From: Polytrichum commune
Lineage: Eukaryota > Streptophyta > Polytrichopsida > Polytrichales > Polytrichaceae
Reading direction: 5' to 3'
Length of the DNA: 64,000 bases
Assembly: GCA_950295325.1 (NCBI GenBank)
Contig: OX485804.1
Coordinates: 10,414,001-10,478,000, forward strand
The position numbers and the translations under genes were made by a program. The notes below the pieces were generated by a model. The model was not told where the DNA came from. It saw only the letters and a list, made by a program, of their open reading frames with translations, and searched no databases. Shown here piece by piece: positions 6,840 through 59,392 of the stretch; the stretch's first letter is position 1, and the number at the start of each line of letters is the position of its first letter.

Positions 6840-6925
6840 CTCCTCCTCAACCTAGGATTAACCTCATTAAAAACTTTCTCAAGTAAAACCCGTTTCGGGA
6901 CAAAACCTTAAGGAAGAAAATAATG

Positions 6926-7756: not shown

Positions 7757-7759
7757 TTT

Positions 7760-10280: not shown

Positions 10281-10297
10281 GAAGTGTTCCTCACATA

Positions 10298-10690: not shown

Positions 10691-10732
10691 TAAAAGGGTT
10701 TAAAGCACTCCCTTTATATCAAGAAAGTGTGT

Positions 10733-10790
10733 TGACTTGGTGGTTAGAACCACCAAGTGGGAAGCCCAAGGTTGGGGGTTCCAATCCCTT
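10733..10790 (+). repeat. tRNA-like / SINE-head-like segment
   Basis: GGTTCCAATCC (10767-10777) matches the Pol III B-box consensus GGTTCGANTCC at 10 of 11 positions. About 35 bp upstream TTGACTTGGTGG is a weak A-box candidate. An 11-bp perfect hairpin (ACTTGGTGGTT / AACCACCAAGT) follows. No cloverleaf with proper acceptor stem can be drawn, so this is not called a tRNA gene. Confidence 0.35.
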
Positions 10791-11116
10791 GGCCCGCAAC
10801 TATGACCTCTAGCCTAGCCTAGTAAGCCTAGGCGAGTATGTTGGAGTTGATGGGGATGTAGTTTGTGCTGTGGTAGTAGTCTGAAATTAATTTCTTTTGC
10901 CCGAACATCCAGGCCGTAAAAAATAAAATTTTCCGGAAAATCCGGAAAGTAAAAAAATTTATTTTTATTTTTATTTTTGTTGGTAAACTTTTGATGACCA
11001 GATCAACAGAACAGATCAACAAAACCGTGTTACAGAGTGTCCAGGTCAACGCGTCCTAAGTAACAACCGCGACCAACACTTTTTTGTTGATCCGGACGCA
11101 AAATTTTCTACTAGTG

Positions 11117-13016: not shown

Positions 13017-13600
13017 CTATGAAATCAAACACTAGTAACACATGCCAGTGTCTACTCCTTAGTTTAGGTAGAAGAGCTTAAAACAGATTGGTTAGAATCT
13101 CAAAGTGGAAGTTTCCAAGTAAATTTCGGCAGCATAACATTTATAAGGGTGGAAAATTTAGAAAAAAAATCTGCAGCGTAACTTTTCTTGTGACTTGGTA
13201 AAAGCAGGAGGTTTATATGATTTGCTATTAACTATTGGACAGTAGTTCGGTATTGTAACAATGTATGACTTTTCTACATGGAAGTCTGGGGAAAAATTTG
13301 GCAGCACTTCGGTACTATCACAACTATCCATAATGTAGAAAATGGGGTAAGAAAGAGCATAATGCTTTCATATATAGTAGCTATCATGGAATGACAAAGA
13401 GCTATATCTGATCCTAGGCAAACTGTGCTTTCTGATAGTAGTCCAATGGTAAAACTATCTGTCTAGTAGTAAAAATAACTTTCTGATGCCTTAAACAAGC
13501 TAAACATGCATGTCTATCTAGTGATCTGTCAAAAGTGACCACTCAAGTGCTCTCAGAGGTGATTGACTAACAATCTAAAGTGAACAATGAGGTGTTAGGA

Positions 13601-13615
13601 GCAGTGCTGATAACG
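13601..13615 (-). promoter_or_regulatory. Candidate primer-binding site of the Copia element
   Basis: Directly inside the 5' LTR the minus strand reads CGTTATCAGCACTGC. TTATCAGCAC is, as I recall, a common first-strand primer site in plant Copia elements. The tRNA pairing was not computed. Confidence 0.5.
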
Positions 13616-14013
13616 TGTTAAGAGTGAGAAAACCAGGTGCATAATGAAACAGAGTAACGGTGCTAACTCAAACTCTTGAACTATCTTGATCAAAGGGGGA
13701 ACTGCCCTTATATACAATCTGGCTCGACACTTGAACTAGGTCCAAGTGTCGGCACCTGGTTACACCGTGGACTAGCTACCTTGGTGGGAATATTCTAGCT
13801 CGGCCTCGGTCTCCTATACCAAGACCGAGGCCCTTAACTAATTGTTTGCTCATAAGTTGAGATACCTTGGACTTGTGTGCACAGCCTCCTACCGGCGGCC
13901 GCCACTTTACTTAAGGTGGCTAATGCCCATGTGGGACTAATTAATACCGATTAGCTTCCATGCTAGATGACGGTTAACCTAGGTTGCCTAGGTGCTTATC
14001 CATTATCTTAACA
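13616..14013 (-). repeat. Copia 5' LTR
   Basis: 398 bp, ends TGTTAAG and TTAACA on the plus strand, which as an inverted pair also define the LTR on the minus strand. It has about a dozen differences from the 3' LTR. The flank after 14013 is TGTAC, matching AGTAC before 6442 at 4 of 5 positions. Confidence 0.92.
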
Positions 14014-21324: not shown

Positions 21325-21534
21325 GGTCATGAAACTGACCCCAGTTTCATCATTCTCTCTAGCTCGCTCTCTCTCGCGCTCTCTCTGACTGATATATTGC
21401 ATGAGAATTTCTGGAAGAAGAAGAAGCAGCAGCTGCTAAGATGGTCTCCGTCCTCGGCTTCGCGCTCTGACAAATTCGAAGAACATCTAGAAAGGGAGTA
21501 GATTCTAGTAGCTACACTGTTGTTTGAGGTTGTT

Positions 21535-24500: not shown

Positions 24501-27080
24501 AACTCCAGTTTAGGTACAGCCGACGAAGAAACATCTAAGGTATGGGGATGTTGTTCAGTTACTTTTCTTCGTTGGACACCTAGTATGTATTTGATTGGTG
24601 TTTGGTTAGGTCAGGATCAAAAAACAAACACAGTAAACACTGTCACATGTTTAAAAGAGATTGGACTACTTTTTCAGATTTTATTACCTACTACACACTC
24701 GATAGTGAACTCAATTGGCAGGACCTATGTACTAGGATTCAAGTTAAGAAATAAACAAACACACACTTTCGATAGCCATAACTAAATTAGCGAGGTCCGA
24801 TTTTCAACCAATTTCTGTTGATGCTTCACCGTAGATTTTCCAATGTCATTATTACAAGTTTTGTATGGAAAACGAACAAAATAACACCCACATACCTTAA
24901 CCAGGAGACGCAGGAATTCAAGGAGCTCATTGAGGAGCTGTTCGTGTTACAAGGCACGGTCGTGATTGCGGGTTACCTGCCGTGGCTGCAGCCGATGGAC
25001 CTGGGAGGCATGGAGAAGCGGATGCAGCAGTTGCGGGTGCGCTTTGATGCGTTTTGCGCAGAAATCATCGAGGAGTACGAGGTGAAGCGGCTGAAGGGGC
25101 TGATCGCCGAGCAAGACAAGAGTATGATTGCCTTGCTCTTCAATCAGATGCATGAACAGGATGGTGTGGATCCGATCGACTTGGATAACCTCCGAAGCAC
25201 CATCATAGTAAGATTGATCAGGATCTCCAACACTCATGAGCCCTCCCTGCTTCTTTGAGTTTCTTGAATGTCATGATGTCATAAGACCTCAAACGTACAC
25301 TTTTTCCAATTTACTTTAAGTATGCATTATTTTTAGAAACTAAGAGGTGAGTCAATCTGAGCAGATGTCGTTGAAAGTTCTGTAGGAAATTACTGGAAGA
25401 TTTTAATTGCTAAAATGCCTTTAAAAGTGATTTTTAGACCCCCTCCCCACCCTGCCCTTTTTTACAATATCATGAAGGTTGTCATGGTCAGCTTCGAAGC
25501 ATGCAGCCTCATTGATTTATTTTTCAAGCTGGGTAAAGGTGATTGTATTTTGTAAGCCGCATCCACAATGAAAGCACCAACTAGAGCACCTTAACATGTC
25601 AAATGGCTTTTCTTTGAATGACATGGTCAATTGAGATTGAATTCTGCAACCATGGCCACTTTGCACCCTAAGGTGGTTGAGTTTATATATATCACGCTTT
25701 TAGGGGCCATAATGTAGTTATCACATTAAGTGTAATAATTTCCTTTTAAGGTTGATATACCTTGGAACATAATTTCCTTAGACATCTCTTGTACTTTACT
25801 CATACCTATTCCGACCTTTAGTTTCGTTTGAATTGATTAAATGAGTTGTAAGTATGCGTGTATGTTTGAAGAGAGTTTTGCAACCATCGTGCTCACAACT
25901 TAGCACCCTGATGCGGTTGACTTTGCATAATATATAGAAACGCAAACGTTTCGAGGCACTTGCATGAATACAAACTCATTCGTCACTAGGGACTTTCCAT
26001 GCATCGCATGAATGGGTTTCCTTGGTGACGTACTACCAATTTGTAAGAAGAACGGTTTTGCTCACCAACAGCAGGTAGCACTGCGTATTGATGCCGTATA
26101 GGAGGATATTGTTATTGTCTTTTATGTCATGGGTTGGACGGGTTGTTAATTTCTTTTCAATTTTATTTTGTAACTCAAGAGACAACATGATACATCGTGT
26201 TCGTGGATTACCCATGCATTGCATAGATGATTTCCTTGGTGGTGTACTATCCACTTGGAAGTAGGAGGGTTTTGCTCACCCGCGGGTGACACCGTATATC
26301 ATTGTTCTTAAATTAGGACAATGACGGTGTAGTTGTTTGTCTGTCGATGGGTGTCATTGGGGTTTCGTTTCCAATTCTCTTTTGTTCGGAAGCTGACCTG
26401 GCACCCCATAATTGTGTGTGTCTGAGCAGAACATGTTTGCAGCGGGCTCGGACACCACAATGGTGACGATCGAGTGGGCGATGGCGGAACTCATCAAGAA
26501 CCCGCACACCATGAAGAAGCTCCAGACGGAGCTCGACACCGTCGTCGGCACCGAGCGGCGCATGGTGAGGGAGGCCGACATCCCCGACCTCAAGTACCTG
26601 CAGGCGGTGGTGAAGGAGACGTTCCGGCTGCACCCGCCGGGGCCGTTGCTCGTGCCCCACGAGTCCATCCGCAACTGCGAGGTCGCGGGCTACCACATCC
26701 CCGCGGGCACGCGACTGTTCGTCAACGTGTACGCACTTCAACGGAGCCCCGCCGTGTGGGACCGAGCCCTGGAATTCGATCCCGAGAGGTTCATCCGAGG
26801 CGAGGGGGTGGACATCGATGTGAGAGGCGCCGATTTCCGCCTCCTCCCGTTCGGGTCGGGGAGGCGAGGGTGCCCGGCGGTTTCGCTGGGATCAGTGATC
26901 GTGCAGCTTGGGCTCGCGTCTCTGGTGCATGCGTTCGAGTGGTCTTTGCCCGAGGGCGAAATTCCGGAGGATCTGGACATGGCGGAGTCGCTGGGGCTCA
27001 GCTTGCCGAGGGCGAGCCCTCTATGCTTGCGAGCTCGACCTCGTTTGCCATACGATTTGTATGCATCGGATGTCGAGTGA
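21535..27080 (+). CDS. Cytochrome P450, A-type (CYP71-clan-like), five exons
   Basis: Exons by GT...AG and frame: 21535-21943, 22767-22896, 24380-24539, 24905-25207, 26430-27080; about 550 aa. P450s are haem monooxygenases anchored in the ER membrane and fed electrons by P450 reductase. Visible parts: N-terminal membrane helix (VLLAAVLMFLPLFVLV), proline hinge LPPSPPSWPIVGHLP, helix C WRKLRKICTLEVF, I-helix AAGSDTT, K-helix KETFRLHP (ExxR), FDPERF, and haem loop FGSGRRGCPAVSLG. The Cys ligand is present, but the usual Gly two residues after it is Ala. ATG at 21535 is the first in frame; 21541 is an alternative. Four introns are more than the one or two usual in A-type genes. The last exon is markedly GC-rich compared with the introns. 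Subfamily and substrate cannot be told. Confidence 0.9.
22262..22450 (-). repeat. Dispersed repeat (GTGGTTAGGTGTGG family) in P450 intron 1
   Basis: The minus strand reads TTTGAGTGGTATGTGGTTGG then GTGTGCCTCC, matching the copy at 23895-24240. Also contains the CATATTTTGAGCATATAGGTC block shared with 28085-28110. Confidence 0.65.
23895..24240 (+). repeat. Dispersed repeat (GTGGTTAGGTGTGG family) in P450 intron 2
   Basis: Direct-orientation copy: GGACACCTATATTTGAGTGG, GTATGTGGTTAGGTGTGGC, then AATAGTCAACATAATTGGGG and CACTTTGATGAAGAATA. The same ordered blocks occur at about 28800-29110 and, weaker, 29385-29640. Confidence 0.65.
25985..26320 (+). repeat. Two-copy tandem duplication in P450 intron 4
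   Basis: Blocks CCATGCAT(C/T)GCAT, TTTCCTTGGTG, GTACTA and GGTTTTGCTCACC recur at about 25995-26070 and 26210-26280. Unit about 210 bp. A second diverged pair (TTGCACCCTAAGGTGGTTGA near 25660, TTAGCACCCTGATGCGGTTG near 25900) lies just upstream. Confidence 0.55.
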
Positions 27081-37651: not shown

Positions 37652-37877
37652 TAAGATGAATGGAGATGAAGAAGGCAAAGCCGCAAAAGACTTTCATGTT
37701 TGAGAGAGGAGAGGAGAGGCGAATCAATCCCAAAATGTGCTCACTAGAGTGGACGTTGGGTTATTGGAAGGCGCTTGATTGTTGCTTTGGGCATGGTTGG
37801 TGGGTGTGGTAGGGGGGGGGTTGGGGGTGTTATCATTGTGATTATTGTCATTATGGCACTGCTAATTTTGTGTGATT

Positions 37878-37983
37878 TGTCGTGTAAATAGCGATCGTGT
37901 GTCACTGCAGCTCGAGTACCAACCACCACTAACAAACAACACTAAAACATAGCAAAGTCACACATAAACAACACATCTCGACA
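37878..37983 (-). repeat. Gypsy terminal block S, outer copy
   Basis: 106 bp, TGTCGTGTAAATAG to CATCTCGACA, nearly identical to 38321-38426 (one difference seen). Begins TG and ends CA. Absent beside the right-hand X copy. Confidence 0.9.
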
Positions 37984-38318
37984 AGAGAAGGAAGAGAGTA
38001 GAGCACTCACAATAGCTCTAAATCTCTCTTCAAATGCACACAACTAGTCAAGCTATCTCTCACTCCACCAAGGAAGAATCCAAAAGTGTAAGTAGGGGAA
38101 GAAGAACTCAAGATTTATTGCAAAATCATGCAATCTACACCTCACACAAGCTCTCTTCACACACTAACTCACAAGACTTGACTTGGCAAGAATGCCAAGC
38201 CAAGGAGGAGGCTCCTCACTTAGGAGCCTTCTTCTCCACATCTAGATTCATCCATCCAAATCTAGATGGATGAAACCCAACGGATAAGGTGCGGCCGTCG
38301 ACGCCGCATACCGTGACA
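37984..38318 (-). repeat. Gypsy terminal block X, left copy
   Basis: 335 bp, matches 47374-47707 without gaps and with roughly six substitutions. The minus strand starts TGTCACGG and carries AATAAA, a candidate polyadenylation signal. Either X alone or X plus S is the LTR. Confidence 0.9.
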
Positions 38319-38320
38319 GC

Positions 38321-38426
38321 TGTCGTGTAAATAACGATCGTGTGTCACTGCAGCTCGAGTACCAACCACCACTAACAAACAACACTAAAACATAGCAAAG
38401 TCACACATAAACAACACATCTCGACA
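38321..38426 (-). repeat. Gypsy terminal block S, inner copy
   Basis: Second S copy, separated from X by two bases. On the minus strand it is directly preceded by the purine tract GAGGGGGGGCA (38427-38437), which looks like the polypurine tract and marks TGTCGAGATG as the true 3' LTR start. Confidence 0.85.
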
Positions 38427-38710
38427 TGCCCCCCCTCAGTTGACTATGGAGTCCCGCCAAGTAGCTAGGACCAATGCCAATCTAAAGGGCATGGATAATG
38501 AAAGATTGCTCCGCAGCTAACTAGTGTGGTGAACGGTATTCCAAGGAACTGTAGACTGGGTGCAAGGTGAGCCCCATCCTTAATCGCCTCTGATGTTTGG
38601 CCATCAGATCCCAAAGAATTAAATCCACCGCCTCATGTTGATTGCGTCTCTATGCCATAACTCCTCATTTTCCATTTGGGCAGGCACAAGATGATGAAAA
38701 CCACACAGGA

Positions 38711-38888
38711 TCATTGAGTACGATTGGTGGAAGCACCAAGTACCGAAGATCCTCGACAGCGAGGACAACTCCACTGTCCAGATGGTAGAGAAGTCAAGGG
38801 TGGCCTCAAGCATGTCATGTGCCAACTGCGTTGACACTGATCACACAAGAGCATAGTAGCCGCTCATTTTTTCTCCACACACAAAACA
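38711..38888 (-). pseudogene. PHD finger at the C-terminus of the Gypsy integrase
   Basis: Spacing is C-x2-C-x11-C-x2-C-x4-H-x2-C-x14-C-x2-C, the C4HC3 signature of PHD fingers: CFVCGEKMSG, then MLLCDQCQRSWHMTCL, then LPSGQWSCPRC. MLLCD.C...WH..CL is characteristic. PHD fingers bind histone H3 tails and often read lysine-4 methylation state. One 1-nt frameshift lies between GEKMSG and MLLCDQC; all eight zinc ligands are present. A stop follows at 38711-38713. In chromoviruses this position carries a chromodomain that guides integration, so a targeting role is a reasonable inference. Confidence 0.82.
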
Positions 38889-40170
38889 TGGAAGACCCTC
38901 TGGTACGACAGCCAGTTCAGGATGAACTGTACCCTCAATAGGTAGATGACATGGGACACAGTTTTTGGAATGCTCGCGACATTCCCTGCCATCTTTGCCT
39001 TCCAACAACAACAAACCACTCGGCAACACCTCCTTCACCCGAAGGATAGTGCGTCCCGCCCTGACATCCAATGTCGTAGGCGCCTCACGTTGAAGATAAA
39101 CATAATCCCCTTGCTGAAATCTCCGCAACTGAGGTCGGTAAGCACCACTACGAATGCGTGCATAACGCAATGTGTCACGGTGCTGAGCAATGGACAAATT
39201 CTCCATGGCCATAGGCATGGCCCTCTGGAAGAATTGAGCCCGCTCCTGTAAACACTCTACCCAAAGGTCTGGGTCATCCAAGTTCACAACATGAGCTAGT
39301 TTTTCCCGAATAGAACTCGGGAGTATAGGCTCACGTCCATACAATAATTGATACGGGCTGTAGGATGCCAAAGAGGCCTGCCTACTAAATCGATAGCCCA
39401 TAGCAATCTATGGCAACATAAGGTCCCAATCCCGGTGGCTTCCCCGAAGTAATCCATACTTCCTCAAGCCACGCTTGGTTGTCTGAACAACCCGTTCAGC
39501 CAAGCCATCTGCCTCCGGATGATCCCGAGAGGTGGTGCGGTGATCTATGAGAGCCTTAGTGCACAACTCCTCAAAAGCACTCCCTCCCTTGGTCCGTCAA
39601 CACCTCAGCTGGTGCTCCAAAACGTGCTAACACACGATCCAAAAAGGCGGCCGCGGCCAACTCTGCAGAGTTCTGGGGTAGAGCAACAAGCTCAATCCAT
39701 TTGCTAAAATGCTCCACCATCACCAAAACGTACTTTGCTCCACGTGGTGTAACCACCAACGGCCCTGCAAAGTCCAGCGACCAACGGTAGCCTAATCCCA
39801 TGATAGGTAAGGGCTGTAACTGAGGTGATAAGGTGTTAAAGCTAGACCTGACCCGGTCACAAACTTCACACCTCCCGACATATGCAGCCACCTGCTGATA
39901 CATGCCAGTCCACTAATATTGGCCACGCAACATCGAATGTGTCCTGCGTATGCCAAAATGGCCAAGTTCCTCGTGCACTTGTCGCACCAAGGAGACCCTT
40001 TGATCCGGCCTAGGAACAATACGCCTTGTCCCATCCGGCCACAATCGAAATAACAAACCGTTCTCCCAACGGAACCTTGTTATTCGATGTCCAATCCTAT
40101 CCCTTTCCATTGCCGAAATAGACAAAAGAAAGATACCTTGTTGAAGCTTATGCAATACGGGAAGATCCTC
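38889..40170 (-). pseudogene. Gypsy integrase (broken)
   Basis: The HHCC zinc domain is visible (VHEELGHFGI, then CEVCDRV), then the catalytic core with first Asp in WSLDFAGPLVV, second in VLTDQGRE and Glu in the GLAERVVQTTKRG segment, then the C-terminal part (YQLLYGREP, GDYVYLQRE, VLPSGLLLLEGKDGREC). Defects: amber at 39913-39915 and 39408-39410, both where Trp is expected, and a frameshift near 39573. The enzyme would insert the cDNA into host DNA. The PHD finger follows in a shifted frame. Confidence 0.9.
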
Positions 40171-41847
40171 TCATATATCAGCAATAGCTTGAGGCCGATC
40201 ATTCTCATCATCTAAGCCCTGTATCGGAATCTCAACAGATGCACCAGAAAATAAAGTGAGGTAGGCAGCCGCGTGCCAACTTGGAACCGCCTCTCGATCA
40301 CAATCTCCATGCCACCTGGCCCCGGTCAAGTCCTCATCCGAAGGACTTGGATTGCGTGAGAGTCCATCTGCATCCATGTTGGTAATCCCAGCATGGTGTA
40401 CCACCTCAAAGTCATACTCCTGGAGCAACAAAGCCCATCTGGCAAGCTTGCCAGTAAGCTTATCCGACTCCATGAGCCACCGTAACGGCTGATGGTCAAT
40501 CACCAAAATAAAGTGTTGACCATAAAGATATGGCCGGAAATGGGCAATAGCCCACACCGCCGCCAATGCTTTTCCCTCATAGGATGAATAATTGGCCTCC
40601 GCCGTGTTGTTGCTTAGCGACGCGTAAGCAACAACATACTCCCGGCCAACATCATCTTTCTGAGTAAGAACTCCTCCCAAACCCAATGAGCTCCAGTCTG
40701 TATGCAACTGGAAAGATTTGGAGACATCTGGACGTCGAAGCACTGGAGCCGTACCCAGTTTCTGCTTCAATGTCTCAAATGCCTGTTGCTGCTTACGACC
40801 CCAAGTCCAAGGTTGGTCCTTGCTCGTGAGAATGGTGAGCGGCTTGGCAAAGAAGCTAAAGTTCTTGACGAATCGCCGATAGTAATTCGCCAAGCCCAAG
40901 AAAGCACGAAGTCTCGGCACATCTACCGGTGCCGGAATCTTCTGCAATGCGTCCACCTTAGCTTGTTGTACCCCAAGACCTCCTGGAACAATCATATGCC
41001 CCAAATATGCCAACCGGTCATGGAAAAACTTGCACTTGCCGTGGTGCAAGCGCAATTCCCACCGCTGCAACCGTTCAAAAACGGCTTGCAGATGCCTCAC
41101 ATGCTCCTGTGGTGTTGTACTGAAGATGATCACATCATCTATGTAACACCGAGCAAAGGGCAAGCCAGAGAGAACATGATCCATCACCCGCTGAAACTCA
41201 GCGGGTGCATTCTTCAGGCCAAATGGAAGAAACTTCCAATGGTAAAGTTGATCCTTCCCATCTTGATCAACTCCCTAGAATGCGGTTTTCACTCGGTCCC
41301 CCACAAGTAATGGGAGTTGGTGATAGCCGGATCTCAAGTCCAACATGCTAAAGACTCGAGCAAATTCAAGGGCATCGAACAACTCCTTCGGAATTGACAT
41401 GGGATATCGATCCGACTTGGTCTTCCGATTAACTGGATGGTAGTCCCCACACATCCGCTTCTCTGTCTAATTGCCAAAGATATCCTTCTTCGATGGCATA
41501 ACCGTAGTACAAGCATACTCCCCGTTGGAAAGTTCAATTAGCCCTGCTGCCAAGAGCTCTCGGCAACGAGCCTGAACGCCAATCCGCTCGGAAACACTGA
41601 GCCTATAAGGTCTCCGAAAAATGGGATGGTCATCCTCCAACTGAATGTGGATGGGTTTTCCTTTATAACCTTCAAGATCCTGAAGGCTAAAAGCAAAACA
41701 TCTACGGTACGAGCGAATAAATGCTCGTACCTTCCGTGCCTCAGCACCAGTGAGACGAGGGCCTAATTCAAGTGGCCAATCATCAAACTCTGTAGTCTCC
41801 CTCTCCACCAAAGGAGAACCATCTGATGCTGGCACAGACTCTAATTG
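40171..41847 (-). pseudogene. Gypsy reverse transcriptase and RNase H (stop-interrupted)
   Basis: RT motifs in one frame: IFRRPYRLS, CTTVMPSKKD, YPMSIPKELFDALE, WKFLPFGLKNAPAEF, catalytic CYIDDVIIFS, AYLGHMI, LGLANYYRRFV. RNase H motifs follow: LHTDWSSLGLGG, YEGKALAAVWA, VIDHQPLRWL, and a tail like NMDADGLSRNP. Stops at 41467-41469 and 41275-41277 (TAG) and 40171-40173 (TGA) sit where family members have, or probably have, Trp (for example KTAFWGV), so they look like TGG to TAG or TGA decay. This segment shares the frame of the methyltransferase and is separated from it only by the amber at 41848-41850. Confidence 0.92.
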
Positions 41848-43479
41848 CTAATGAGAGGAGGGGGCATTAACCATGCCCCCAGTCTCGGTGCTAGTACTAG
41901 AGTCTGACATTTCTTCATCACCACCAATATGTGATGATGAAGCCAACACCGGAGGCGAAGAAACCGAAGCAGTGTAAAAATATTGAGCTCGAAGCTCCTC
42001 CATCACATGCTGCTCGAATTGAAAAATTCGTTCGGCTTCTCCAACCATGGCGTGAATTCCCTCCTCCATGGATGTGGACCGTTGTGCCCCCTGACCAGAG
42101 TCCTCTGCCCCCAGAGACAACCACTGGTCACCATGATGCCTTTGCAATGAAAAACATAAAGCAACAGTCCACACCATAGTATGAAAATCCATAGCTTGGC
42201 CCAACACGAAGCGTCGTTGGCCCTCAGAAAGGCCGGGAGCTGCGGTGGTGCCAGTGCGGAATCCCATGGCACGTTCCCATTCGTCAGCCAATGGTTCGGT
42301 GTGGGTTTTGGTGTGAACATCCCACACCATACCCAGCCCCCTATCGCGGAAAGTGAATGACTGTGGAAACATCATAAATGTGGGAAAGGCCCGCCGTGGT
42401 GCCCCCATTTTGTTGACCAATGCCAACGGGGGTAAATCATCTCGAACAACCGGCAAAGAAGTCCGGTTTGGGTCCAAGATGTCATCCACCTTTTGATCAA
42501 AAGGTGGAGGCACTGTAGAAAATGCTGCAGCTAAAGTAGATGACGGTGCGAGGTTGGTCCAAATCCACCGAGGTCGGTGGGCATAAGAACCAAAGCTCGC
42601 GGCATCCACAAAAATGGGATCTCCAAGATGTTGACGAACATAATAATCGCCTTCCAACACCTTGTCCCGAGAGTCTCCCAACAAAGGTACATTCTCGAAA
42701 ATATACCCTGGAGGGAAAGGTTGGTGGGAATACCACCACTGCATGAGGCGGATGAGGTCCCAAAATAGAGTAGACCTGGGATCCTCTAGTCCTCCGCCTG
42801 CTCCAGCACGTGAATGGCCCTGGCATGGCCATCCCGCAATCACCATATCCACCGGACCTAAGTGTCGTAAGTCGGCCTCACTGATGAGTGTGACATCACG
42901 AGGGAGACGTGAAAAACACCCACGAATGGCAGTTGGAGGTAACTGCTAGGGATACAATACCATCAATTGGTGAAGATGGTGACGAGCCACACGGGTGGAC
43001 ACTTGAGAGTTCTCCACATAGACATACCGTCTAACCGTGAGGCCAGCCTCCAATACGGCTGCTAAGCCTGTGCCGATGCCCCCAAACAGTTCCACCAAAG
43101 TAATTCCCGCGTCTGGCAGCTCCCATAAAATGGGATGTGCCAATGCCGAGAGGACACCCGATATGATTGGTGTCCTAGGAGTGAGATAGTGAACAATATC
43201 CTCGCACCTCCGAAATAGCTCGGCGGAATCACGCCAAGGAGGAAGGGGATCCTTGGGATGGCACACCAATGCACCCTTAGGTGCCATATCCCGTTGATCG
43301 TCTGTACTCTCCATGAATGCCAATGACTCCTCCAACAATGCGGAACCATAAGGCAATGTGTCCACCATAGCACCACATCCAAAAACCATAGATAATGGTG
43401 CTATGGTCGCAGCCGCCGCGCAGCCACGGAAATAAGTTCCCTGCGGCCATCCCCAGCCAACCAACCTGGTCGGATCCAC
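41848..43479 (-). pseudogene. C5-cytosine DNA methyltransferase domain (DNMT3-like) inside the Gypsy pol
   Basis: Motifs in canonical order on the minus strand: I, ITLVELFGGIGTGLAAVLEA (near 43068-43105, AdoMet binding), then RRYVYVEN; IV, IAGWPCQGHSRAG with the catalytic Cys codon at 42823-42825; VI, YIFENVPLL (about 42690); VIII, YAHRPRWIWTNL (about 42555-42585); X-like, GLSEGQRRFVLGQAMDF (about 42184-42232). The spacing GI.TGL..VL...G..V.RY and DA....HRPRW.WTNL recall DNMT3/DRM enzymes, without the permutation seen in plant DRM. Such enzymes methylate cytosine C5 in DNA. The stretch upstream of motif I (about 180 residues) is unassigned. One in-frame amber at 42946-42948 (TAG CAG TTA) lies between motifs I and IV; a second (TAG CAA TTA) ends the domain. 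No frameshift is seen within the domain. The frame changes just before, near 43430. Confidence 0.88.
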
Positions 43480-44635
43480 GCCTCCTCAGTCCAGTTGTCC
43501 AAACCAAAACCAAGAGGGTAAAATGCTTGCTGACCAACTAAAATGTCATAGTTGGTCGCATCCGTCACCGCACACCTAAGAAGAAGAGGTATGGGTGAAT
43601 CTCCAGGCTTCATTCGGAAGCTACCTGTAATGGCTCTCGAGTATAACCCATGGCCTGCTCCACGTGACTAATGGATGTGACAATGGTGAATGGACAGGGA
43701 GCCAAATCCTCGGCCGTCAACCTCAACTCTTGGGCAAGCCTCTTGCCGATCATAACTGGTTGTGCCCCTGAATCCATCATCACACAACGGGGAGCAACCC
43801 GAGTAGCATTGCTCCCAGTGCGACTGACCACCAAAATTCCGGTATCATTAACCATACGCACAACACTGGGTCGAATGCTGCGGCGCTCGCGGATAGGTCT
43901 AGCAGTGACATCAGACAAATAGGCTGCACCCGCGGATACTGGTAAGTCATAAAACGTGGTCGGTGCCTTGACATCTGAGGCGTGTGCGTCAAAAGACGCA
44001 ATGGTCTCTGCCGCAAGTCTCGCTCGCCGTTTGGCCACATCCTCAGGATCTTCAAAAGCAGGGATGTCCGTAGTGGCTTGAGCCACGGTTAGAGAAGGTA
44101 AGGATGCCTTCCCTTCCAAAATCCTACCTGCTAAGTGAAAAACCTTAGCGGGTTGGACATCAAATGATGACCATTCCATGGCCGTGAACAAAGGTGTGTG
44201 CAACATCTTGGATGCCAACGTGTGCGCCACATCAGTCGCTGAATGTGAAACCTCATCGTTCGGATGACGACCACTGAAAGATTGGACGGCATCGGCCAAT
44301 CCAAAAGATAATGGTAGTCGTGCCTGACCAATTTGGTCCGCGGGCGCATTGTCTCGAGCTCGCGAGCTTGCCACATATTCATTTGTGGTCGAATGTATGG
44401 ATTGTGACACGGCTTGAGCACGTGTCACGGCCGCGGAACTCACCACCTCGCCCGAGGCTCCGAACATATAGTAATCCGGAGTGGAAGAACTAGCCTGAGC
44501 TCCGGAGGAAGATGGTGAGGCCAAGATTTGGCCGGATGACGCCAAGCTTTTGAACCTCTCCTCCATGGCTCCAATCTTCGCCTCCAACGTCTTCTCCCGG
44601 TCGGAAGAAGGACGTTTCTAAGGATGGAGAGCAAA
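43401..44635 (-). pseudogene. Gypsy linker and retropepsin (frameshifted)
   Basis: After the zinc knuckle an amber codon near 44619 is followed by an unassigned 200-residue linker, then a retropepsin with CVMMDSGAQPVMIG, the DSG active-site motif (about 43765-43785). The frame stops at 43610 and resumes in another frame with LLLRCAVTDATNYDILVGQQ then ALYPLGFGLDNW-like residues, the C-terminal protease part. A third frame begins near 43430 and leads into the methyltransferase. The protease would cleave the polyprotein. Confidence 0.82.
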
Positions 44636-45743
44636 GCAGTTCTCTACTACGTGATTGTTCCGCCCACAATGAGAACACTTCAACTGCTTGGGGAACTGAT
44701 TACCCGTCGTTCCCTTTGCCGAGCCCTTAGCTGGAACAAATGGTTTCCGCTTCGGCCTCGGCCAATCCCGCAGCCGCAACCGGAACTCTTCGGGATTTGC
44801 TAGAATCTACTAGCAGGGACATCAAATCAGTGGCATCGTGCTGACACAATGCACGATCACACTGCTCCACAATGGCGAATGCCTCTGCGAGTGTCGCTCG
44901 ATCACCATAATCCATGATGATCCTGGGCAGCACCAAATCAAGGAGGCGTTTGTCAATCTTGGACAAAAACACCTTCATCAATTGATTTTTTGCAAACATA
45001 CCTCCAGATTCTCTGGCAAACCTCGCCAACTTCGTATACATGGAACGAGGTGTATCGTCCTTCTCCTGTCTAAAATCTTATATCCGCTGCATCTGGTCTC
45101 GACGGAAACCTCCGTACTCCTCATGTAGATGCAGCTCAAATGCCCGCAACGGCTCAAAAACTGGCGGAGCCCCCAAAGAGGCTAAAGCCGCCTGGGTAGC
45201 CTGGGCATAACGGGAGAGTGGAAGAATGAGGCTCGACGTACTCGCCACAACGGGAGCAAAACCCTTATCCTTGGGTTCATTAGGAGAAGCTCCCTCCACG
45301 TCCACCACAAATACTCCCTCCGGCACCTCCGATTTAACCTCAGGGACGGCCATGAAACTGGAAGTTGCGCCTTCCTTCAATGCGGATATCAACTCAACCC
45401 GAGTCTCCCAGTACCGCTCCACCTGGCACAGCTCCATCCAATGAGCATCTGTCCACTGCTCATAAGTTTGGAGAGCTTCATGCTCCAAATGCTGAGGCAG
45501 AAGCTGGAACGCATACCAATCGTTGAAATTGGTATTGCGTTGGCGTTTCTCGCGCATCCACGTACGAAACCGGATTTTCCAGTCTTGCAGAGAAATGATC
45601 CCTGCTCGACCGGAAAACCGGTCCCGTATCCCTCCCCTAGTCTTCTCCTCCATATCGTCAAAGGTTCCCACCCACAGGACGTGAGACCGAGTGATAGTCC
45701 CCCACGCCGAAGTAGGCTGAAAAGCCTCGTTGGGTGCTATCAC
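44636..45743 (-). pseudogene. Gypsy gag with CCHC zinc knuckle (broken)
   Basis: Capsid-like Gag: WKIRFRTWMREKRQ, FQLLPQHLEHEALQTYEQW, then a linker, FELHLHEEYGGFRRDQMQRI, a TAA at 45078-45080, and LARFARESGGMFAKNQLMK, KRLLDLVLPRI. A frameshift near 44735 leads to the knuckle CSHCGRNNHVVENC (codons 44678 to 44636), spacing C-x2-C-x4-H-x4-C. The start is unclear: no ATG opens the frame and a stop lies just upstream, so a further frameshift near 45790 is likely. Confidence 0.85.
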
Positions 45744-47373
45744 TGGTTCAACGTCCGAGAGGTCCGAGGGATGACCTTCCGATGCTCATGGGGACGGAGA
45801 ACGATAGTGTTGAGTACGAGTTGTAACCATAAACCCACAATGGAATGGTCACCGAATCAACAACCCAAATGAATTAGTATCCAGGTACAAAGAAAAAAAT
45901 GGTCAAAGGCAACCTGCACCTGCAACCACCACCAAAACTTATGGTCTGCTGGTCATTAACCCAGCCTCACCACAAGTGAAAACAAGCACCGCCCACTTGG
46001 TGCACAAACAAAGGTCCCGTCGGTCATTAATCCGACCTCACATCCACAGTACCCTGTCACAATCTAGGACTACACAAAATGGGGCAGTGCTAGAACACCC
46101 CAGCACTACAGCCCGCCACAGGAGAAGGTGCCAAAACAAAATACAAGGAACAATGCGAGAACAGCATTGGATCCTCTTCCCCAAACCAACATTCAAGCAA
46201 AAATTAAAAGCAACCGCGACCAACCGGCACCCGCCTGCGGTTGGTGGTCAAAATGAAGAGGCCTTGTTGCTTAAGAAAAGAAAATGCACATCTCTCATTT
46301 TCCTACCACTACCTAAGAATTTCTCCTTACAACAATGCCAGGAATATGTGTTGATAAACACAATTCGACCCTAATAATAATTTATTTTAGGCCGAACGAA
46401 AATTCCACATGCCACCCAATTCCCAATGACACTCCCCTCGGAAATTTCGTACAACACAACCCCTAAAAAGAATCCCAAGTACTTTTAATATTTCATAAGA
46501 ACTTAGGTTTTCTTCCTTGTGTCCTTGATTAATGAGCCCGAGAAATTAACCTCTTAGAAAGAAGAGAAAAATTAGAAGTTGAAAGGAAACATAAACTAAT
46601 TAGTTAATTTAATTAATTTAATTAAAATAAAAATCCGGTTTTTATTTATTAAATTAAATTAAATTAAATTAAGTCCGTTTTTAATTCTTTAACTCATTTA
46701 TTAATTCAAAAACAAACACAAAAACAAACACAAAAACATAAACAAAATAAAAATAAAAATGATTGTCAACACGAACCGGTTGAACTTGCAAACACCCAGG
46801 TCTCAATTGATTATGCCCAACATAGTCTCCCCTCAACTGGAACGCAGGCAGACAAACAGCCTGACCAGCAGCCGTCGCTGCTGGCCGCCTGCTGGCAGGC
46901 AGGGTAGGCCGAGCAGACCAGGCAGCGAGCTGGGCAGGCTTAGCCGCCGCTTCGGCCGCAGATAGCCGCTGTTTCGGTACAGACCAGGGCGAGCCAGGAG
47001 TTGGGGCTCCTAGAGCCGGCTCTTGGCCACTCCTTTTTTTTTTTGAATTTGAGTTTGATTTTTTTTTTGGTTTGATTCAAGGTTTCTTCTACTTAGAATC
47101 AAAACTCCGCTTACAAAGCTCAATGTCACGGATTCAAGCTTGAATGTGAGCAAAACAACATGAAATTCCGTGAAAAATGCAATACCTTATCACCACAATT
47201 CACCTTGAAGTGACATTCACAAGCAAGCATTCTTCATGTTGCTTCGCAAATTCGCGGTGTCATCCCTCCGGAGCTTCACAACTTCGTCATTCCTTGTCTT
47301 TACGCCCTCCCTTGCGCGTTACATCTCAAGAATGAAGTAGAAAACATCAAAGATGAGGCAATTCTTGCCAAGT
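45744..47373 (-). other. Gypsy 5' leader region
   Basis: Between gag and the right-hand X block. Holds an AT-rich stretch of TTAAA and TTAAT repeats (about 46595-46700), a (CAAAAACAAA) tract and a GC-rich patch with repeated CAGGCAG and CTGCTGG words (46845-46990). No clear primer-binding site is seen next to X. Confidence 0.45.
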
Positions 47374-47707
47374 GAGAAGGAAGAGAGTAGAACACTCACA
47401 ATAGCTCTAAATCTCTCTTCAAATGCACACAACTAGTCAAGCTATCTCTCACTCCACCAAGGGATAATCCAAGAGTGTAAGTAGGGGAAGAAGAACTCAA
47501 GATTTATTGCAAAATCATGCAATCTACACCTCACACAAGCTCTCTCCACACACTAACTCACAAGACTTGACTTGGCAAGAATGCCAAGCCAAGGAGGAGG
47601 CTCCTCACTTAGAAGCCTTCTTCTCCACATCTAGATTCATCCATCCAAATCTAGATGGATGAAACCCAACGGATAAGGTGCGGCCGTCGACGCCGCATAC
47701 CGTGACA
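47374..47707 (-). repeat. Gypsy terminal block X, right (5') copy
   Basis: Same length as 37985-38318, about 98% identical. The minus strand starts TGTCACGG at 47707. Block S, expected beside it if LTRs were complete, is missing. Confidence 0.9.
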
Positions 47708-49570
47708 GATTGCATAATGTCACAGATCACACTAATTATGTTTTTATCACACATTAATGTGAGCACCACAAAACTCAATATCACATACACTGTCGTTGCC
47801 ACGAAGTGTGATACACTCTAGACTCTGTAGTATTAAACTTGTGGCAACCAAAGTGCATGTGATATTACGGAAATTTTGTAGTGGTAATATGGATGTGTGA
47901 TACTATAGATTTAGTGTATCATGTGACACTATGGAATAACACAAAGTGCAACATTTCAATGTTGTGGTGTGGTCCACTCCACTCCACTTGGCCTTCCTGG
48001 GCAATGTGGCATATGCATGCACCAACATTCAACAAGTGGCAGAAGAAGAAGAAGAAGAAGAACATCTGTTCCCTAGGGTTTCGGGGTATTAGAGAGCGAG
48101 TGACATTATGCAGGTTGATATTACGGAGTTTAGGGTGTACTAGGAGTTTTATAGTGTATATGTGGTGGCCGGCTGGCCTACGACCTACATTATTACTATT
48201 ATTATGCTCTGGAAAACTCACAAATGGATATTATTTATTCTAATCATAGGCTGGAAGGAAATTGAATTCTATCTATGGAAGCATGGCGTGTAGAAGTCAC
48301 ACATATAAGTGAGGTACAGTACACCTAAATGCCACAGTGTCCAAGGCAAGCAAAATATGTGAAGGACTCCTTGAAGTCGCCATGCAAGTCAGGTTGTGGT
48401 GTAAGTTTTTTTAAATCATATTGTCTCATAAACTATCTCATGTCTGTACTAGGTAGCAAGCAACTTAGGAAAAGAAAGGTGGGGAGGGGGGGGGGGGAGG
48501 TTCTTACCATATATATGGGTCTAGTGTTGCATCTAGTGTGTACATACCTTACCTTACCCCCCCCAACTCCAATGGCTTGGGGTCCAAGTAAACTCGTTCT
48601 TCATAAATGAAAGGGCTCTAGTAAAAACAAGTCTTTTACAAGATTGAGAATTGAATAAATTCAATTGGAGTCCATTCAACTGATTTGAGATTTGAGATTC
48701 GTGATTTCTGATGGCATTTCTAGAGTCAATTGGTCTAAAATCCCAAATAATTGGATTGTAGAATATTTTAATACGTGTATACCTCGATGATGGATGAGTT
48801 TATGTAGACATTGTGAATCCTTAGCCAATTCCTGGTACCAAACTACATGTGACTCTAGGTAACTAGCATAATTTCCATGGAGTATGTTCATCATCCATTT
48901 TTGTCAACCCACTTTGTGACACCATACTTGTGAATGTATAAAAGAAGATTATGGACATGAAATAACACGATCCCTCTTGACAATATAACATGGCCGACAT
49001 TAACCCCCCCCCCCTAGTAGTTTTTTGGGGAGGTGAATACGGGCAAGGGCAACCCCCCAAATAGAAATCGAGATTTTTTGGACCCGACCAAAAACTTTTG
49101 CTTGCCCCGCCCAACTTTGAAAACACCATTGCCCTTGCATTCTTGAAGGCCACTTATTCACAAATCCCCATATTGAGTGCACTTCACCTTCAAGGTTCAA
49201 AACCCAATACATATCTTCACTTCCATTAAGTCTATAAGCAATTGACTAGGATTTTATTTTTGAAGTAAGGTCATCAATAAAGCATGTAATTAACTTGAAA
49301 GTAAAAAATCTTACAAAACCCTCATTAGCATTGAGGTTGTAATTTTTGTGACTTACCATTGAAAGGATGTTTGTCATTCTAAAATGGAACTAAAATTAAT
49401 GTTTTATTTTTAGTATGTTTATTTTATGATATTTTAGTTAATAACTTCTATTTTCACAAAGTATTCATACACATTTAAACTAATTAAATGTGATTGAATG
49501 TAATTAAGTCTAAATATCCATCCAATGTCTTGAATTGGCTGCTTGCTTTGGTACTCATGAATGAAAGTGC
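47708..49570. other. Gene-free stretch
   Basis: 47708-48240 has many short inverted words (TGTGATAC, GTATCACA) and a (GAA)n tract near 48040. G-runs at 48485-48499 and C-runs at 48558 and 49005. No gene recognised. Confidence 0.4.
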
Positions 49571-54945: not shown

Positions 54946-57900
54946 ATGATGATAGTGGTATGGATCCTATGGTTGCTGGGGTTGGGAATATGTATAAGCT
55001 TCCTGGGCGTGGTGGCCAGAGATTGGATATGGCGACCTTACATGTTAGTGCAAGAGTGCAGGAGGCAAGGCATCCAGGGTTTTCCTTTTGTACCCATTGT
55101 GGGACAGATGCCAGCAATTGACGAGGTATCAAATCGAATTTTCTGTCATGGCCAAATTTGAGGCAGGAGGATATGAATTGATGAATTTGGTATTTGTTTT
55201 TTGTTTTTGTTTTGCTGTCGACAAAGCTTCTACGCATAGTTCCACATAGATTACATTAAGGGTGCTCGTTATTTGAATGTGGTTGGCCCTTTTTTGATTT
55301 TGAAATTTTTCTTAAATAAATTGAACATGGATGAATGGACATAGTTTTTGCGTGTTCTGTTGCCCCTGCTAGTACCATCTATCTATGCCATGTTTTGAAG
55401 TGTCTTCTTTGCGCAGCCTCTCTTCCTCAATATCTTCAACATTAGTAACACTTCCACATTTCAACACTGAATATGCCACAGATCCCTTCAACTTCCTGGA
55501 ACCTGACCGCTCACACGATAGCATTCCCCTGCAGGTGCTTAAGGGAAGGACCAGGACGGGTACTCGGGTCGACGAAGACATCATAACGGCGACGCAAAAT
55601 TGCTACCGGAAGCATGGGAATACATTTTACTTCACAATTGGCAAGACAGTGAGGTTGAGCATTGCCGACCCACAGTTGATCAAAGCCATATTGATTGTCA
55701 ATTCAAACTCGTATGCGAAACCTCACCACGTGCGAGTTCTTGGGATTTTTGGAACTGGGATATTTGCATCCAGTGGGGAGACTTGGGCGCCACAAAGACA
55801 GCTTCTAAATGGCGCCTTCCACACCAAAGAAATCAAGGTATGTAGAATTTACACGCCAATTCCTCCTGTTTTTGTGTCAACTGTTTACTACAGATTAAGA
55901 CTTCACTCTGCACAATATTTTCTTACATGGATGATGATGCTTGCATCAAAGTGCCTTTAATTCTTGGTACCGTGGAACACTCTTATGAAGTTCAATATTG
56001 ATGTGCAGCAAATTCGTCAGTTTAAAACTCTGTATGCGTGGATAGGAAATGAATTCAAGTCATCTCAAATCTGTTTATTGCTCTTCTTCTCAAGTTTCAG
56101 TGATGGTTATGAATGTGTAGTTTTTATGTATATTCACAACAAATTTGCTCCAGCAGCTCTCCAGAATGCACGTATGGCTCTAAATTGCCTATAAGAATGT
56201 CCGATGGACACTTAGGGTCATCTCTGAGGAAATCCTATTTTTTTATGTAGGCATAGCAACTGAATTCAAGTCATTATAAGTATCTTTAATCTTCTTCTTT
56301 TGTGACGATTTGAGGCAAATGGTGATGGTAGTCTCAAGTTTCAATAATGGTTAATGTATGTATATCCTGTATGTGTGTACAAATAAATTTAGCTCCAGCT
56401 GCTCTTCAGAATGTATGGATGGCTCTAAATTGCCTCTAAGATTGTCCGACTGACATGCGGATCATCTTCGAGGATACACATTTTGACATCTGTGCATATC
56501 AACTGAATTTAAGCCATCACAAATTTCTTCTTCTTATTGAAGAAAAATTGTTTTGGTAGGCTCAAGTTCCGGTAGTGATTATGTATGTGTATCCTCTATA
56601 TACAACAACAATTTAGATCCAGGAGCTCTCCAATCCATGTATGGCTCTAAACTGCCTATAAGATCGTCTGACTGACCACTTAGGGACTTCTTCTCCTTCT
56701 TCTTCTTCTTCGGAAATGGTTATATATGTGTATACTGCATATACACAAGAATTTAGATCCAGCAGCTCTCCAGGACGCATCTATGGCTTTAAATTGCTTA
56801 TAAGAGTGTCCGATTGTCTCTTGGGGTCTTCTCTAAGGATATCCACTTTGATATGTGTGCATAGCAACTGAATTCAAGCCATCACAACGTCTTTTTTTTT
56901 TTCTTCTGTTACGAAACGAGGCAAATGGTGGTGGTAGGCTCAAGTTGTGGAAATGGTTATTTATGTGTATCCTGTATGGACATACACAACACTCTAGATC
57001 CATCAGCTCTCCAGAGTGCAACCATGGCTTTAGAATGCTTGTAAGATTGTCCAACTAATCACTTGGGGTCACCATTTAGGATTACCCATTTCTGTCACTG
57101 AACTTACAATGGCCCATTTTGTTGATGATGCAAACAGAGCAAAATACCCACCATGATCGAGTGTGCACATTCTGCCACGGAAAGGTGGATAGCGAAACTG
57201 AGCAGAGGGCAAGGCGAATTCGACATGTACCAGGAGTTTGCCAAACTGACGTTGGATGTGATTGGGAGAACTGCATTTGGAGCAGAAATTGGCGGGAATG
57301 CCAGGTTGGCGTCCACCGTGATTGGACGCTTCAACCGATACCTTCTCAATTGTAGAGAGCTTGTGTTTGGGCCGGCGGCTATTTATCCAAGACCTCTGTA
57401 AGTAATTTCTGTCTGTCTCTCTAGATGAGGTTGAGAGCTTGAAGGATGGAGCCTTTTAGTCAGTCAAGTCCACTACTCAAATGAAATTGAGCTTTTATCT
57501 TGAGAGCTTGATCTGTTTACTTTGATCTGTTTGATTGTTTAGATGGCGTCTTGATGGATCTCATGTGGAGTGACTAAGACAAGTTCTTGGGTCATTTTTG
57601 ACAAGCTCTCTGTCAAAATCCTCAGCTACCTACCTCATGAAGGTCGCTTAAGAATGTCGAGAGTTTTTGAGTTCTCATTATGTGGGCTGTAAGCCAAAGC
57701 ACTCTCAGGAATTCTGTGCTATGCAAATCCACTTCACAATGAGAATTCACAATTAGAATTGAGCTTTCAACTTGAGAGGTTGATCTTATTACTGGGCTTT
57801 CAATGTTTAGATGTTGTCTTGATGGATCCATGTGGAACAAATATGAGTAGTTCTTTTCCATTTATGACAAGCTCAGAGTCAAAACCATGGAGGTTGCTTA

Positions 57901-59392
57901 AGAATTTCGAGAGTTTGGAGCTCTTGTCTTGTGAGCCCCAAGTCGATGCGCTTCGTTTCTAGCATTCTTTGGTATGTTATGAACTAGTTTGGGCCTGTGC
58001 CGTCCCCGCCCATTGCACCCATGCATATAAATTAAGGTCATCCTTAGATTGTCCTCTCAACATGCCCCCGTCCACAGCCGGCCGTTTTGAAACTTTGTAA
58101 TGGAAACTGCTTCACCATTCTCCCCTTGATATCTCACTTTGAGCATGGCCACTTTACATATGTTACACTTAGAGCTCGAGGATTGGTCGTCCAGCTCAGA
58201 TCTGAATAGTTTGAGCTTTGGATGTTAGTTTGTCAAATCCAAGAATCAAACTCCCGAAATTTGCAATCTGAAACTCTCAACTCGAGCTCTAACCAAAAAA
58301 TAATGATTTATCCTATCCTAATCACAAAGAGAAAGGTGTGAAGAGATGAATACAAGCTACCATTTGTAATGCTTGCCTTGCTCGGCTGCTGTACAAATAA
58401 TCTGTGATGACAAACACTAACAATCTTTGTTGATAAACAATCTGTGATGAGGAACACTCGCAATCTGTGATGACAACGCAATAGTTTTCGTTTGTGTTTG
58501 GTTTGGTTTGGTTCTGAATACCTAACTCTTTATGTATGCCGTTCCAAGCAGATATGGGGCCACGAAAGTGAAGAATGAAATTGCCAAGGACGCAAGATGG
58601 TTAACAAGTTATGTGGAATCGATTCTTCGCCGCAGGGAGGATCAGTCTCGGTCTCGCGGTGGGGATGATGAGGTTCTTCTTGCCTCTGCAGAATCTGTGA
58701 ATGCCTTGCATCATCATGACCTGTTGGACGTGATGATGGAGGCAACAACCACCGAACCAAAAAAACTCACCAAGAAGCAATTACTTGACAATGCACTCAC
58801 ATTCCTTCTTGCGGGACACGAAACGACCGCCAGCCTCCTCACATGGACGATTTATTTGCTAGCCAAGCACCCGCTATGGCAAGAGCGAGCTCGGGCGGAA
58901 GTGGAGGAGTTTTGTCCAGATGGTTTTATAGAGCCCCAAGTGCTAACCCATCTGAAACTTGTGGGGATGATATTGTTCGAGTCCTTGAGGTTGTTTCCTC
59001 CAGTGCCACTCATAGGTCGAACGTGCATTCAAACAAATAGAGTGGGGCCCACTTTGGTGGTGCCTGAAGGCTTGGAAATTGTCATCCCTGTGGCTGTGGT
59101 GCACAGAGATAAGAGTATATGGGGGGAGAATGCAGATGAGTTTTGGCCAGCTAGGTTTGGAGATGGGATTAGTGGAGCTTGTGGAAACCCACTGGCTTTC
59201 ATACCGTTTGGAGCTGGTCCGAGAACGTGCATTGGTCAGACCTTAGCAATCTCGGAAGCCAAGGCTGTGTTGGCAGTCATGTTGCCCTTGTTCACATGGA
59301 AGCTGGGCTCAAGCTATAGCCATAGCCCCGATGTAACACTCACCATGATGCCCGAATTCGGGATGCCTATTGTTTTGGAAAAGTTGCATTGA
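54946..59392 (+). CDS. Cytochrome P450, CYP72 clan, four exons
   Basis: Exons: 54946-55125, 55535-55837, 57138-57397, 58552-59392; 1584 nt, 527 aa, normal for the clan. First ATG after an upstream stop is 54946. Visible: membrane helix (VVWILWLLGLGICISFLGVV), WRP....R.QGI.GFPF (the clan's N-terminal signature), TFYFTIGKTVRLSIADPQLIK, GIFASSGETWAPQRQLLNGAF (helix C), FAKLTLDVIGRTAFG, I-helix LLAGHETTASLLTW, ESLRLFPPVP (ExxR), haem loop FIPFGAGPRTCIGQ with all consensus residues. CYP72-clan enzymes oxidise hormones, fatty acids and terpenoids; the substrate here is open. Introns 2 and 3 hold tandem repeats. Nothing indicates loss of function. Confidence 0.92.
56150..57085 (+). repeat. Five-copy tandem repeat in intron 2 of the second P450
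   Basis: Copies near 56153, 56397, 56620, 56762 and 57003 share CAGCTCTCCAGA, ATGGCT(C/T)TA.A.TGC, TATAAGA(A/T)(T/C)GTC.GA and CACTTAGGG or variants, plus ATGTGTAT and a TTCTTCTTC tract. Unit about 140-250 bp. Confidence 0.8.
57470..57960 (+). repeat. Two-copy tandem duplication in intron 3 of the second P450
   Basis: TTGAGCTTT.(A/T)TCTTGAGAG, GTCTTGATGGATC, ATGTGGA, GACAAGCTC and GCTTAAGAAT(G/T)TCGAGAGTTT recur with an offset of about 280 bp. Related words reappear downstream at 59870-60440. Confidence 0.7.

What the first reader, a model, noticed from the sequence alone, without database searches (positions are those of the whole stretch)
41848..43479. A Ty3/Gypsy element carrying a DNMT3-like cytosine DNA methyltransferase between protease and reverse transcriptase
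Seen: C5-MTase motifs I (VELFGGIGTG), IV (GWPCQG), VI (FENV), VIII (HRPRWIW) and an X-like block in canonical order, in the same frame as the downstream RT. Known: C5-MTases share this order, and as I recall methyltransferase-bearing retrotransposons have been described from Symbiodinium and the alga Klebsormidium. Inferred: an element that methylates its own cDNA or genomic copies, perhaps to mask itself, to limit damage to the host or to protect new insertions. If the host is a land plant, this extends that phenomenon.
Basis: partly seen in the sequence, partly recalled or inferred. Interest (0 to 1): 0.92.

Follow-up and report, generated by a model that had tools for sequence, protein, structure and literature searches.

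The report
Plant retrotransposon carrying a DNA methyltransferase
A damaged jumping gene in what is probably a plant genome carries the remains of its own DNA-methylating enzyme and a chromatin-reading module; elements of this kind are already known from an alga, and this looks like a further member in another host.

Summary
Minus strand 43485-41848 encodes a C5 cytosine methyltransferase domain between protease and reverse transcriptase of a retroelement with Ty3/Gypsy-type Pol (Pfam DNA_methylase 46 bits; best solved relative DNMT3A). It shares the RT frame, but two TAG stops break it, one between motifs I and IV, so this copy cannot make the whole enzyme. The repeats are split, 335-coding-106-335-106, as in PAT elements, yet there is a DDE integrase, a 4-bp target duplication and no tyrosine recombinase among Pfam hits. 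A PHD finger follows the integrase (37 bits). Frameshifts and stops show the copy is dead, though its repeats still match at 98-99%. The closest known system is KnitGypsy-Dnmt3 of the alga Klebsormidium nitens (PMC5890265), reported with Gypsy domains, DNMT3 in Pol and DIRS-like repeats. This is most likely a further member of that kind, in a probable land plant. Sibling copies, selection and a tree could not be tested. Self-methylation of cDNA is inference; the published yeast test of the Klebsormidium enzyme was inconclusive.

The parts
37878..47707 (-). whole element, termini TGTCACGG...CACGACA
   Evidence: repeat pairs and terminal sequence
37874..37877 (.). putative target site duplication, GATT on + strand (AATC on -), one end
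   Evidence: random 4-mer pairs in this window match at a rate of 0.00545 (20000 pairs)
47708..47711 (.). putative target site duplication, other end
47374..47708 (-). 5' terminal repeat B' (335 bp; its outermost base overlaps the duplication)
   Evidence: 98.2% identical to 37985-38319; contains AATAAA
47340..47373 (-). primer-binding-site region just downstream of B'; complementary to a stretch near 47585-47570 in B' (possible self-priming)
   Evidence: duplex -39.0 kcal/mol for 47334-47378 against B'; 500 base shuffles of the site mean -25.9, sd 3.1, lowest -36.5
44727..45785 (-). Gag-like region, broken by a stop at 45080
   Evidence: open frames; no Pfam match; assigned by position
44636..44677 (-). 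CCHC zinc knuckle CX2CX4HX4C
   Evidence: read by eye in the translation; no Pfam hit
43404..43774 (-). aspartic protease region beginning DSGA, spread over two frames
   Evidence: Asp_protease_2 17 bits, below cut-off 24.3; second half read by eye
41848..43403 (-). DNMT3-like C5 cytosine methyltransferase domain and flanking linkers, with a TAG stop inside
   Evidence: PF00145 46.1 bits; DNMT3A E 6.7e-10; motif positions; stops
40414..41847 (-). reverse transcriptase and RNase H, with TAG stops at 41469 and 41277
   Evidence: RVT_1 93.9 bits, RT_RNaseH 117.9 bits; Ty3 Gag-Pol chain E 8.9e-54
39574..40170 (-). DDE integrase: H2C2 zinc finger and rve core, with a TAG stop at 39915
   Evidence: PF17921 57.3 bits, PF00665 40.9 bits; foamy-virus and Ty3 integrase
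38841..39407 (-). presumed integrase C-terminal region in a shifted frame; ends with the first Cys pair of the PHD finger
   Evidence: open frame, no Pfam hit, reading by eye
38756..38884 (-). PHD finger, with a frame shift inside it
   Evidence: PF00628 37.2 bits, E 2.9e-9, cut-off 24; PDB best a CHD4 chain, E 2e-19; frames
38427..38437 (-). polypurine-tract-like GAGGGGGGGCA abutting repeat A'
38321..38426 (-). internal repeat A' (106 bp)
   Evidence: 99.1% identical to 37878-37983
38315..38324 (.). palindrome GACAGCTGTC at the A'-B junction: 3' end, GC, 5' end of the element
37985..38319 (-). internal repeat B (335 bp)
37878..37983 (-). 3' terminal repeat A (106 bp)

Best explanation
This is a defective copy, with little-diverged repeats, of a retroelement with Ty3/Gypsy-type Pol and split direct repeats. 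Its Pol region runs protease, DNMT3-like cytosine methyltransferase, reverse transcriptase/RNase H, DDE integrase, PHD finger. Shown from sequence: this order (protease weakly), the repeat arrangement, TG...CA ends with a 4-bp flanking match, and the breaks in the frames. Inferred from PMC5890265 and family knowledge: an intact relative makes the methyltransferase as part of Pol and methylates its new cDNA (I give this step about 0.35). Also inferred: reverse transcription uses the PPT-like and primer-site-like sequences that bound a 443-bp A+B unit, giving a circular or tandem form; the DDE integrase opens it at the internal A|B palindrome; the PHD finger guides integration by reading a histone tail. 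This copy can do none of it now. The confidence below is for anatomy and kind, not for these inferred steps.
For: Methyltransferase. RT and integrase. PHD. Repeats, ends, flanking match, palindrome. No tyrosine recombinase among Pfam hits (E<=0.5) in 18 six-frame pieces covering 38427-47373. Third-position GC of the MTase frame (0.483) is like RT (0.493) and integrase (0.508), against 0.425 overall GC of the window. Precedent with the same reported domain set and repeat layout: KnitGypsy-Dnmt3, with Ka/Ks<0.2 on its DNMT. SymbioDIRS-Dnmt3 enzymes methylate CG de novo in yeast.
Against: Only one copy was seen (no other in the window at E<=0.01). KnitGypsy-Dnmt3 showed no methylation in yeast; the authors call that inconclusive. 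Motif IV reads PCQ where DNMT3A reads PCN, the bacterial-like letter, and the IX/X half is weakly supported. The flanking match is only 4 bp, where Ty3/Gypsy elements usually give about 5 (recalled). Full-length LTRs, a textbook mark of Ty3/Gypsy elements, are absent. Self-priming, circle opening and PHD guidance rest on sequence patterns alone.
Confidence: 0.75

Rival explanations
1. The methyltransferase is a passenger captured by chance by this one copy, with no role in the element.
For: Only one copy could be examined, and its domain carries a stop between motifs I and IV.
Against: The domain sits in frame between protease and RT with third-position composition like RT, and a Gypsy element with DNMT3 in Pol and the same kind of repeat layout is reported in K. 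nitens.
Confidence: 0.1
2. The repeats are the remains of ordinary 443-bp LTRs reshuffled by recombination or deletion in this copy, not a split-repeat family trait.
For: PPT-like and primer-site-like sequences bound A+B as they would a normal LTR.
Against: The outer ends are TG...CA with a matching 4-bp flank, the A'-B junction equals the joined ends plus GC, and K. nitens elements are reported with DIRS-like repeats.
Confidence: 0.15
3. The domain was taken up from a host DNMT3 gene independently of KnitGypsy-Dnmt3.
For: Non-flowering streptophytes keep DNMT3 genes (PMC6453930, passages), and independent captures are already claimed for charophytes and dinoflagellates.
Against: Same placement in Pol and same unusual repeat layout as reported for KnitGypsy-Dnmt3. 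No tree could be built here.
Confidence: 0.2
4. The domain, even when intact, does not methylate DNA and serves as a nucleic-acid-binding or RNA-modifying part.
For: No methylation seen from KnitGypsy-Dnmt3 in yeast; PCQ instead of PCN.
Against: The motif IV Cys, ENV and RxR are all present (their roles recalled); DNMT3B also failed in the same yeast assay.
Confidence: 0.15

Closest known systems
KnitGypsy-Dnmt3 of Klebsormidium nitens (PMC5890265)
   Same: As reported in section 9 and its figure legend: Gypsy domain composition, DNMT3-type domain without DRM rearrangement inside the Pol ORF, repeat structure as in DIRS
   Different: Host here is a probable land plant. A PHD finger is found here; the main text of the paper has no occurrence of PHD, so its presence there is unknown. 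Sequence relatedness not tested.
SymbioDIRS-Dnmt3 of Symbiodinium (PMC5890265)
   Same: DNMT3-type domain in Pol with RT; A-coding-B-A-B repeats
   Different: Uses a tyrosine recombinase; here a DDE integrase and no tyrosine recombinase found
PAT-type DIRS elements (PMC4157794, passages)
   Same: Split direct repeats and a methyltransferase domain
   Different: DIRS-class methyltransferases are described as Dam-like adenine enzymes, and integration is by tyrosine recombinase
Ginger1 transposons (PMC2836005, passages)
   Same: Gypsy-like integrase with a C-terminal PHD in one listed family, Ginger1-9_HM
   Different: DNA transposons; no RT (recalled) and no methyltransferase in the passages seen
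Chromoviruses (chromodomain Gypsy elements; abstract of PMC2864245 in a listing)
   Same: Chromatin-reading module on a Gypsy element
   Different: PHD finger here; no chromodomain hit

Membership tests
Ty3/Gypsy retrotransposon | RT/RNase H upstream of DDE integrase, Ty3-like RT | tested here: met
Ty3/Gypsy retrotransposon | full-length LTR at both ends | tested here: not met
   repeats are split, B'-coding-A'-B-A; so it is filed as Gypsy-type by Pol only, not as an ordinary LTR element
KnitGypsy-Dnmt3-like | DNMT3-type domain, motifs not rearranged, in the Pol ORF | tested here: met
   frame broken by TAG stops in this copy
KnitGypsy-Dnmt3-like | DIRS-like repeat layout with Gypsy domains | tested here: met
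   against the Fig. 4 legend; the figure itself was not seen
KnitGypsy-Dnmt3-like | common descent of MTase and RT | not tested
   no K. nitens sequence reachable; protein database switched off
KnitGypsy-Dnmt3-like | purifying selection across copies | not tested
   no siblings; 11 identical genome requests unanswered
DNMT3 | closest to DNMT3 among DNMT families | tested here: met
   DNMT3A from E 6.7e-10; chains named DRM2 at 0.0014 to 0.0015 and 4onj_A (listed as 'DNA methyltransferase', tobacco DRM as I recall) at 1.2e-7, both on the I-IV block only; 3g7u at 1.9e-5, HhaI at 3.2e-4; none named DNMT1 or CMT among 49 at E<=1. Pairwise ranks, no tree.
DNMT3 | TRD and motif IX/X half | tested here: inconclusive
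   11 of 1000 shuffles reach the score; no related PDB match
DIRS/PAT element | split direct repeats | tested here: met
DIRS/PAT element | tyrosine recombinase; no target duplication (the latter recalled) | tested here: not met
   no such Pfam hit in 18 six-frame pieces; 4-bp flanking match

The most novel reading that the evidence does not exclude
Split direct repeats and a DNA methyltransferase occur together in PAT elements, in SymbioDIRS-Dnmt3, in KnitGypsy-Dnmt3 and here. The bold reading is that the enzyme serves the life cycle that split repeats impose: it marks or protects a circular DNA intermediate whose end-to-end junction the integrase must reopen. In this lineage the element also carries a PHD reader, pairing a writer and a reader of chromatin marks on one retroelement polyprotein, much as DNMT3A pairs its catalytic domain with the ADD reader. 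Against it: Ngaro and Viper elements and one derived PAT lineage have split repeats without a methyltransferase, and Symbiodinium LINEs have a DNMT without such repeats, so the link is at best partial.
Probability: 0.15. Interest if true: 0.85.

Novelty: new member of a known kind. Interest (0 to 1): 0.6.

Why it matters
DNA methylation is a main plant weapon against transposons, so an element that carries a de novo type methyltransferase is a paradox. A member outside Klebsormidium, in a probable land plant, suggests the type is old or spreads, and gives a second host for methylome tests. Split repeats with a DDE integrase and a likely target duplication raise a concrete question about circular intermediates, and the PHD finger suggests guided integration.

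Tried and rejected
Ordinary LTR reading of the 335-bp pair: rejected, because the PPT-like tract abuts the 106-bp repeat and the outer 106-bp copy would be unexplained. Tyrosine recombinase: not found by Pfam in 38427-47373. CpG or CHG depletion as a trace of methylation: CpG o/e element 0.72, MTase 0.63, window 0.61; CHG o/e 0.86, 0.72, 0.75; nothing distinctive. A reassigned TAG codon: 4 of 4 in-frame stops between 43485 and 40174 are TAG, but TGA follows at 40173 and 39573 in the same frame and TAA breaks the gag frame, so decay is simpler. An earlier count said five TAG stops there; one search shows four.

Structure prediction of the methyltransferase without relatives failed (mean pLDDT 34.6), so no fold search was made. 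Relatives: viral contigs and genome contigs gave none, which says little, since these hold viral and prokaryotic sequence.

Papers. For a PHD finger on Ty3/Gypsy integrases: 4 of 4 listed; 3 of 3; 2 of 2; passages read in three of them, the rest seen as listings; none found, the nearest being Ginger1. For DNMT-bearing retrotransposons of land plants: 17 of 18 listed; 20 of 30; 19 of 20; 0; 15 of 65; 8 of 8; passages or sections read only in PMC5890265, PMC12344493, PMC6338049 and PMC6453930; none found there. Supplements were not open to me and the library lacks most subscription papers, so absence from print is not shown.

Full report
What is there. On the minus strand, one frame runs from 43485 to 40174 through a methyltransferase region into RT/RNase H, interrupted by four stops, all TAG, at 42948, 41850, 41469 and 41277. 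Pfam finds DNA_methylase (PF00145) at 46.1 bits, E 5.9e-12. The part 43485-41470 has 2 stops in 672 codons where the other five frames have 12 to 33, so it was a long coding frame until recently. Motifs I, IV, VI and VIII are in canonical order.

Which methyltransferase. By sequence against solved structures, DNMT3A is best (E 6.7e-10), then DNMT3B. Next comes 4onj_A at 1.2e-7, listed only as 'DNA methyltransferase' (tobacco DRM as I recall), and chains named DRM2 follow at 0.0014 to 0.0015; all of these match only the I-IV block, as expected if DRM is rearranged. 3g7u follows at 1.9e-5 and HhaI at 3.2e-4. None of the 49 chains with E<=1 is named DNMT1 or CMT. The half after it is poorly supported, and motif IV reads PCQ, not PCN. 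So DNMT3-like is a fair name for the I-VIII half. No tree was possible.

The element. RT/RNase H matches a chain listed only as 'Reverse transcriptase/ribonuclease H' (4ol8, E 6.1e-54) and Ty3 Gag-Pol (7q5b, E 8.9e-54). The integrase has H2C2 and rve domains, with foamy-virus and Ty3 integrase as solved relatives. A protease-like DSGA region and a CCHC knuckle lie upstream; the first is below Pfam's cut-off and the second was read by eye. Downstream of the integrase is a PHD finger, PF00628 37.2 bits, matching CHD4 and others in the PDB. Its first Cys pair lies in the neighbouring frame. This and other shifts and stops show that the copy is dead.

The repeats. A 335-bp pair (6 differences) and a 106-bp pair (1 difference) are laid out B'-coding-A'-B-A. 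This is the split-direct-repeat layout of PAT elements. The outer ends read TGTCACGG...CACGACA, flanked by AATC on both sides; random 4-mers in this window match at a rate of 0.0055. The internal A'-B junction reads CACGACA-GC-TGTCACGG, the two outer ends joined with two extra bases and holding the palindrome GACAGCTGTC. A purine tract abuts A', and just after B' lies a stretch complementary to part of B' (duplex -39.0 kcal/mol; none of 500 base shuffles as good). B' itself holds a hairpin there, so the match may be a by-product of that hairpin. Seen from reverse transcription the repeat unit is A+B; seen from integration the ends lie between A and B. This is the geometry of a two-repeat circle reopened at its A|B palindrome (inference). 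No tyrosine recombinase domain was listed in 18 six-frame pieces of 38427-47373, so the DDE integrase is the likely agent.

What is known. PMC5890265 (abstract, sections 6, 9, 10, 11 and passages read) describes KnitGypsy-Dnmt3 in the charophyte Klebsormidium nitens: DNMT3 without rearrangement in the Pol ORF of a Gypsy element, repeats like those of DIRS, Ka/Ks<0.2. For DIRS elements the authors think cDNA methylation likely, and call the role in each family unclear. In their yeast assay SymbioDIRS-Dnmt3 enzymes worked; KnitGypsy-Dnmt3 did not, which they call inconclusive. [quoted passage not shown] I saw no report from a land plant in the searches named under Tried and rejected.

Host. Not identified. 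Four ORFs with P450 hits suggest two P450 genes with large introns. For one, the four best solved relatives are ferruginol, isoflavone and sugiol synthases and cinnamic acid 4-hydroxylase, plant enzymes as I recall. The other is uninformative: the 60 of 159 matches shown are nearly all the bifunctional P450 BM3 type. Window GC is 0.425. A land plant is likely; a large-genome charophyte is not excluded.

Verdict. In the reported features that could be tested, the element fits the KnitGypsy-Dnmt3 kind. What may be new is the host lineage, the PHD finger, and the likely target duplication with a DDE integrase on split repeats. Function is inferred, not shown. On checking, one probability (the section on the most novel reading) was lowered because names split-repeat elements that lack a methyltransferase.

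Noticed in passing
6444-14013: A Ty1/copia-type element on the minus strand with 396-bp LTRs 97.0% identical.
   Followed up: partly
1945-2144 and 5448-5647: A 200-bp direct repeat pair 99.5% identical, 3.5 kb apart.
   Followed up: no
9732-10083: AT-rich tandem repeat with 26-bp spacing, TATAAATAGTATA-like units.
   Followed up: no
21502-27077 and 55373-59389: Apparently two plus-strand cytochrome P450 genes split by long introns.
   Followed up: partly
56088-57090 and 61046-61735: Local clusters of diverged repeats, about 74-82% identical.
   Followed up: no
47566-47593: Strong hairpin-forming inverted repeat inside the 335-bp repeat, related to the putative primer site.
   Followed up: partly
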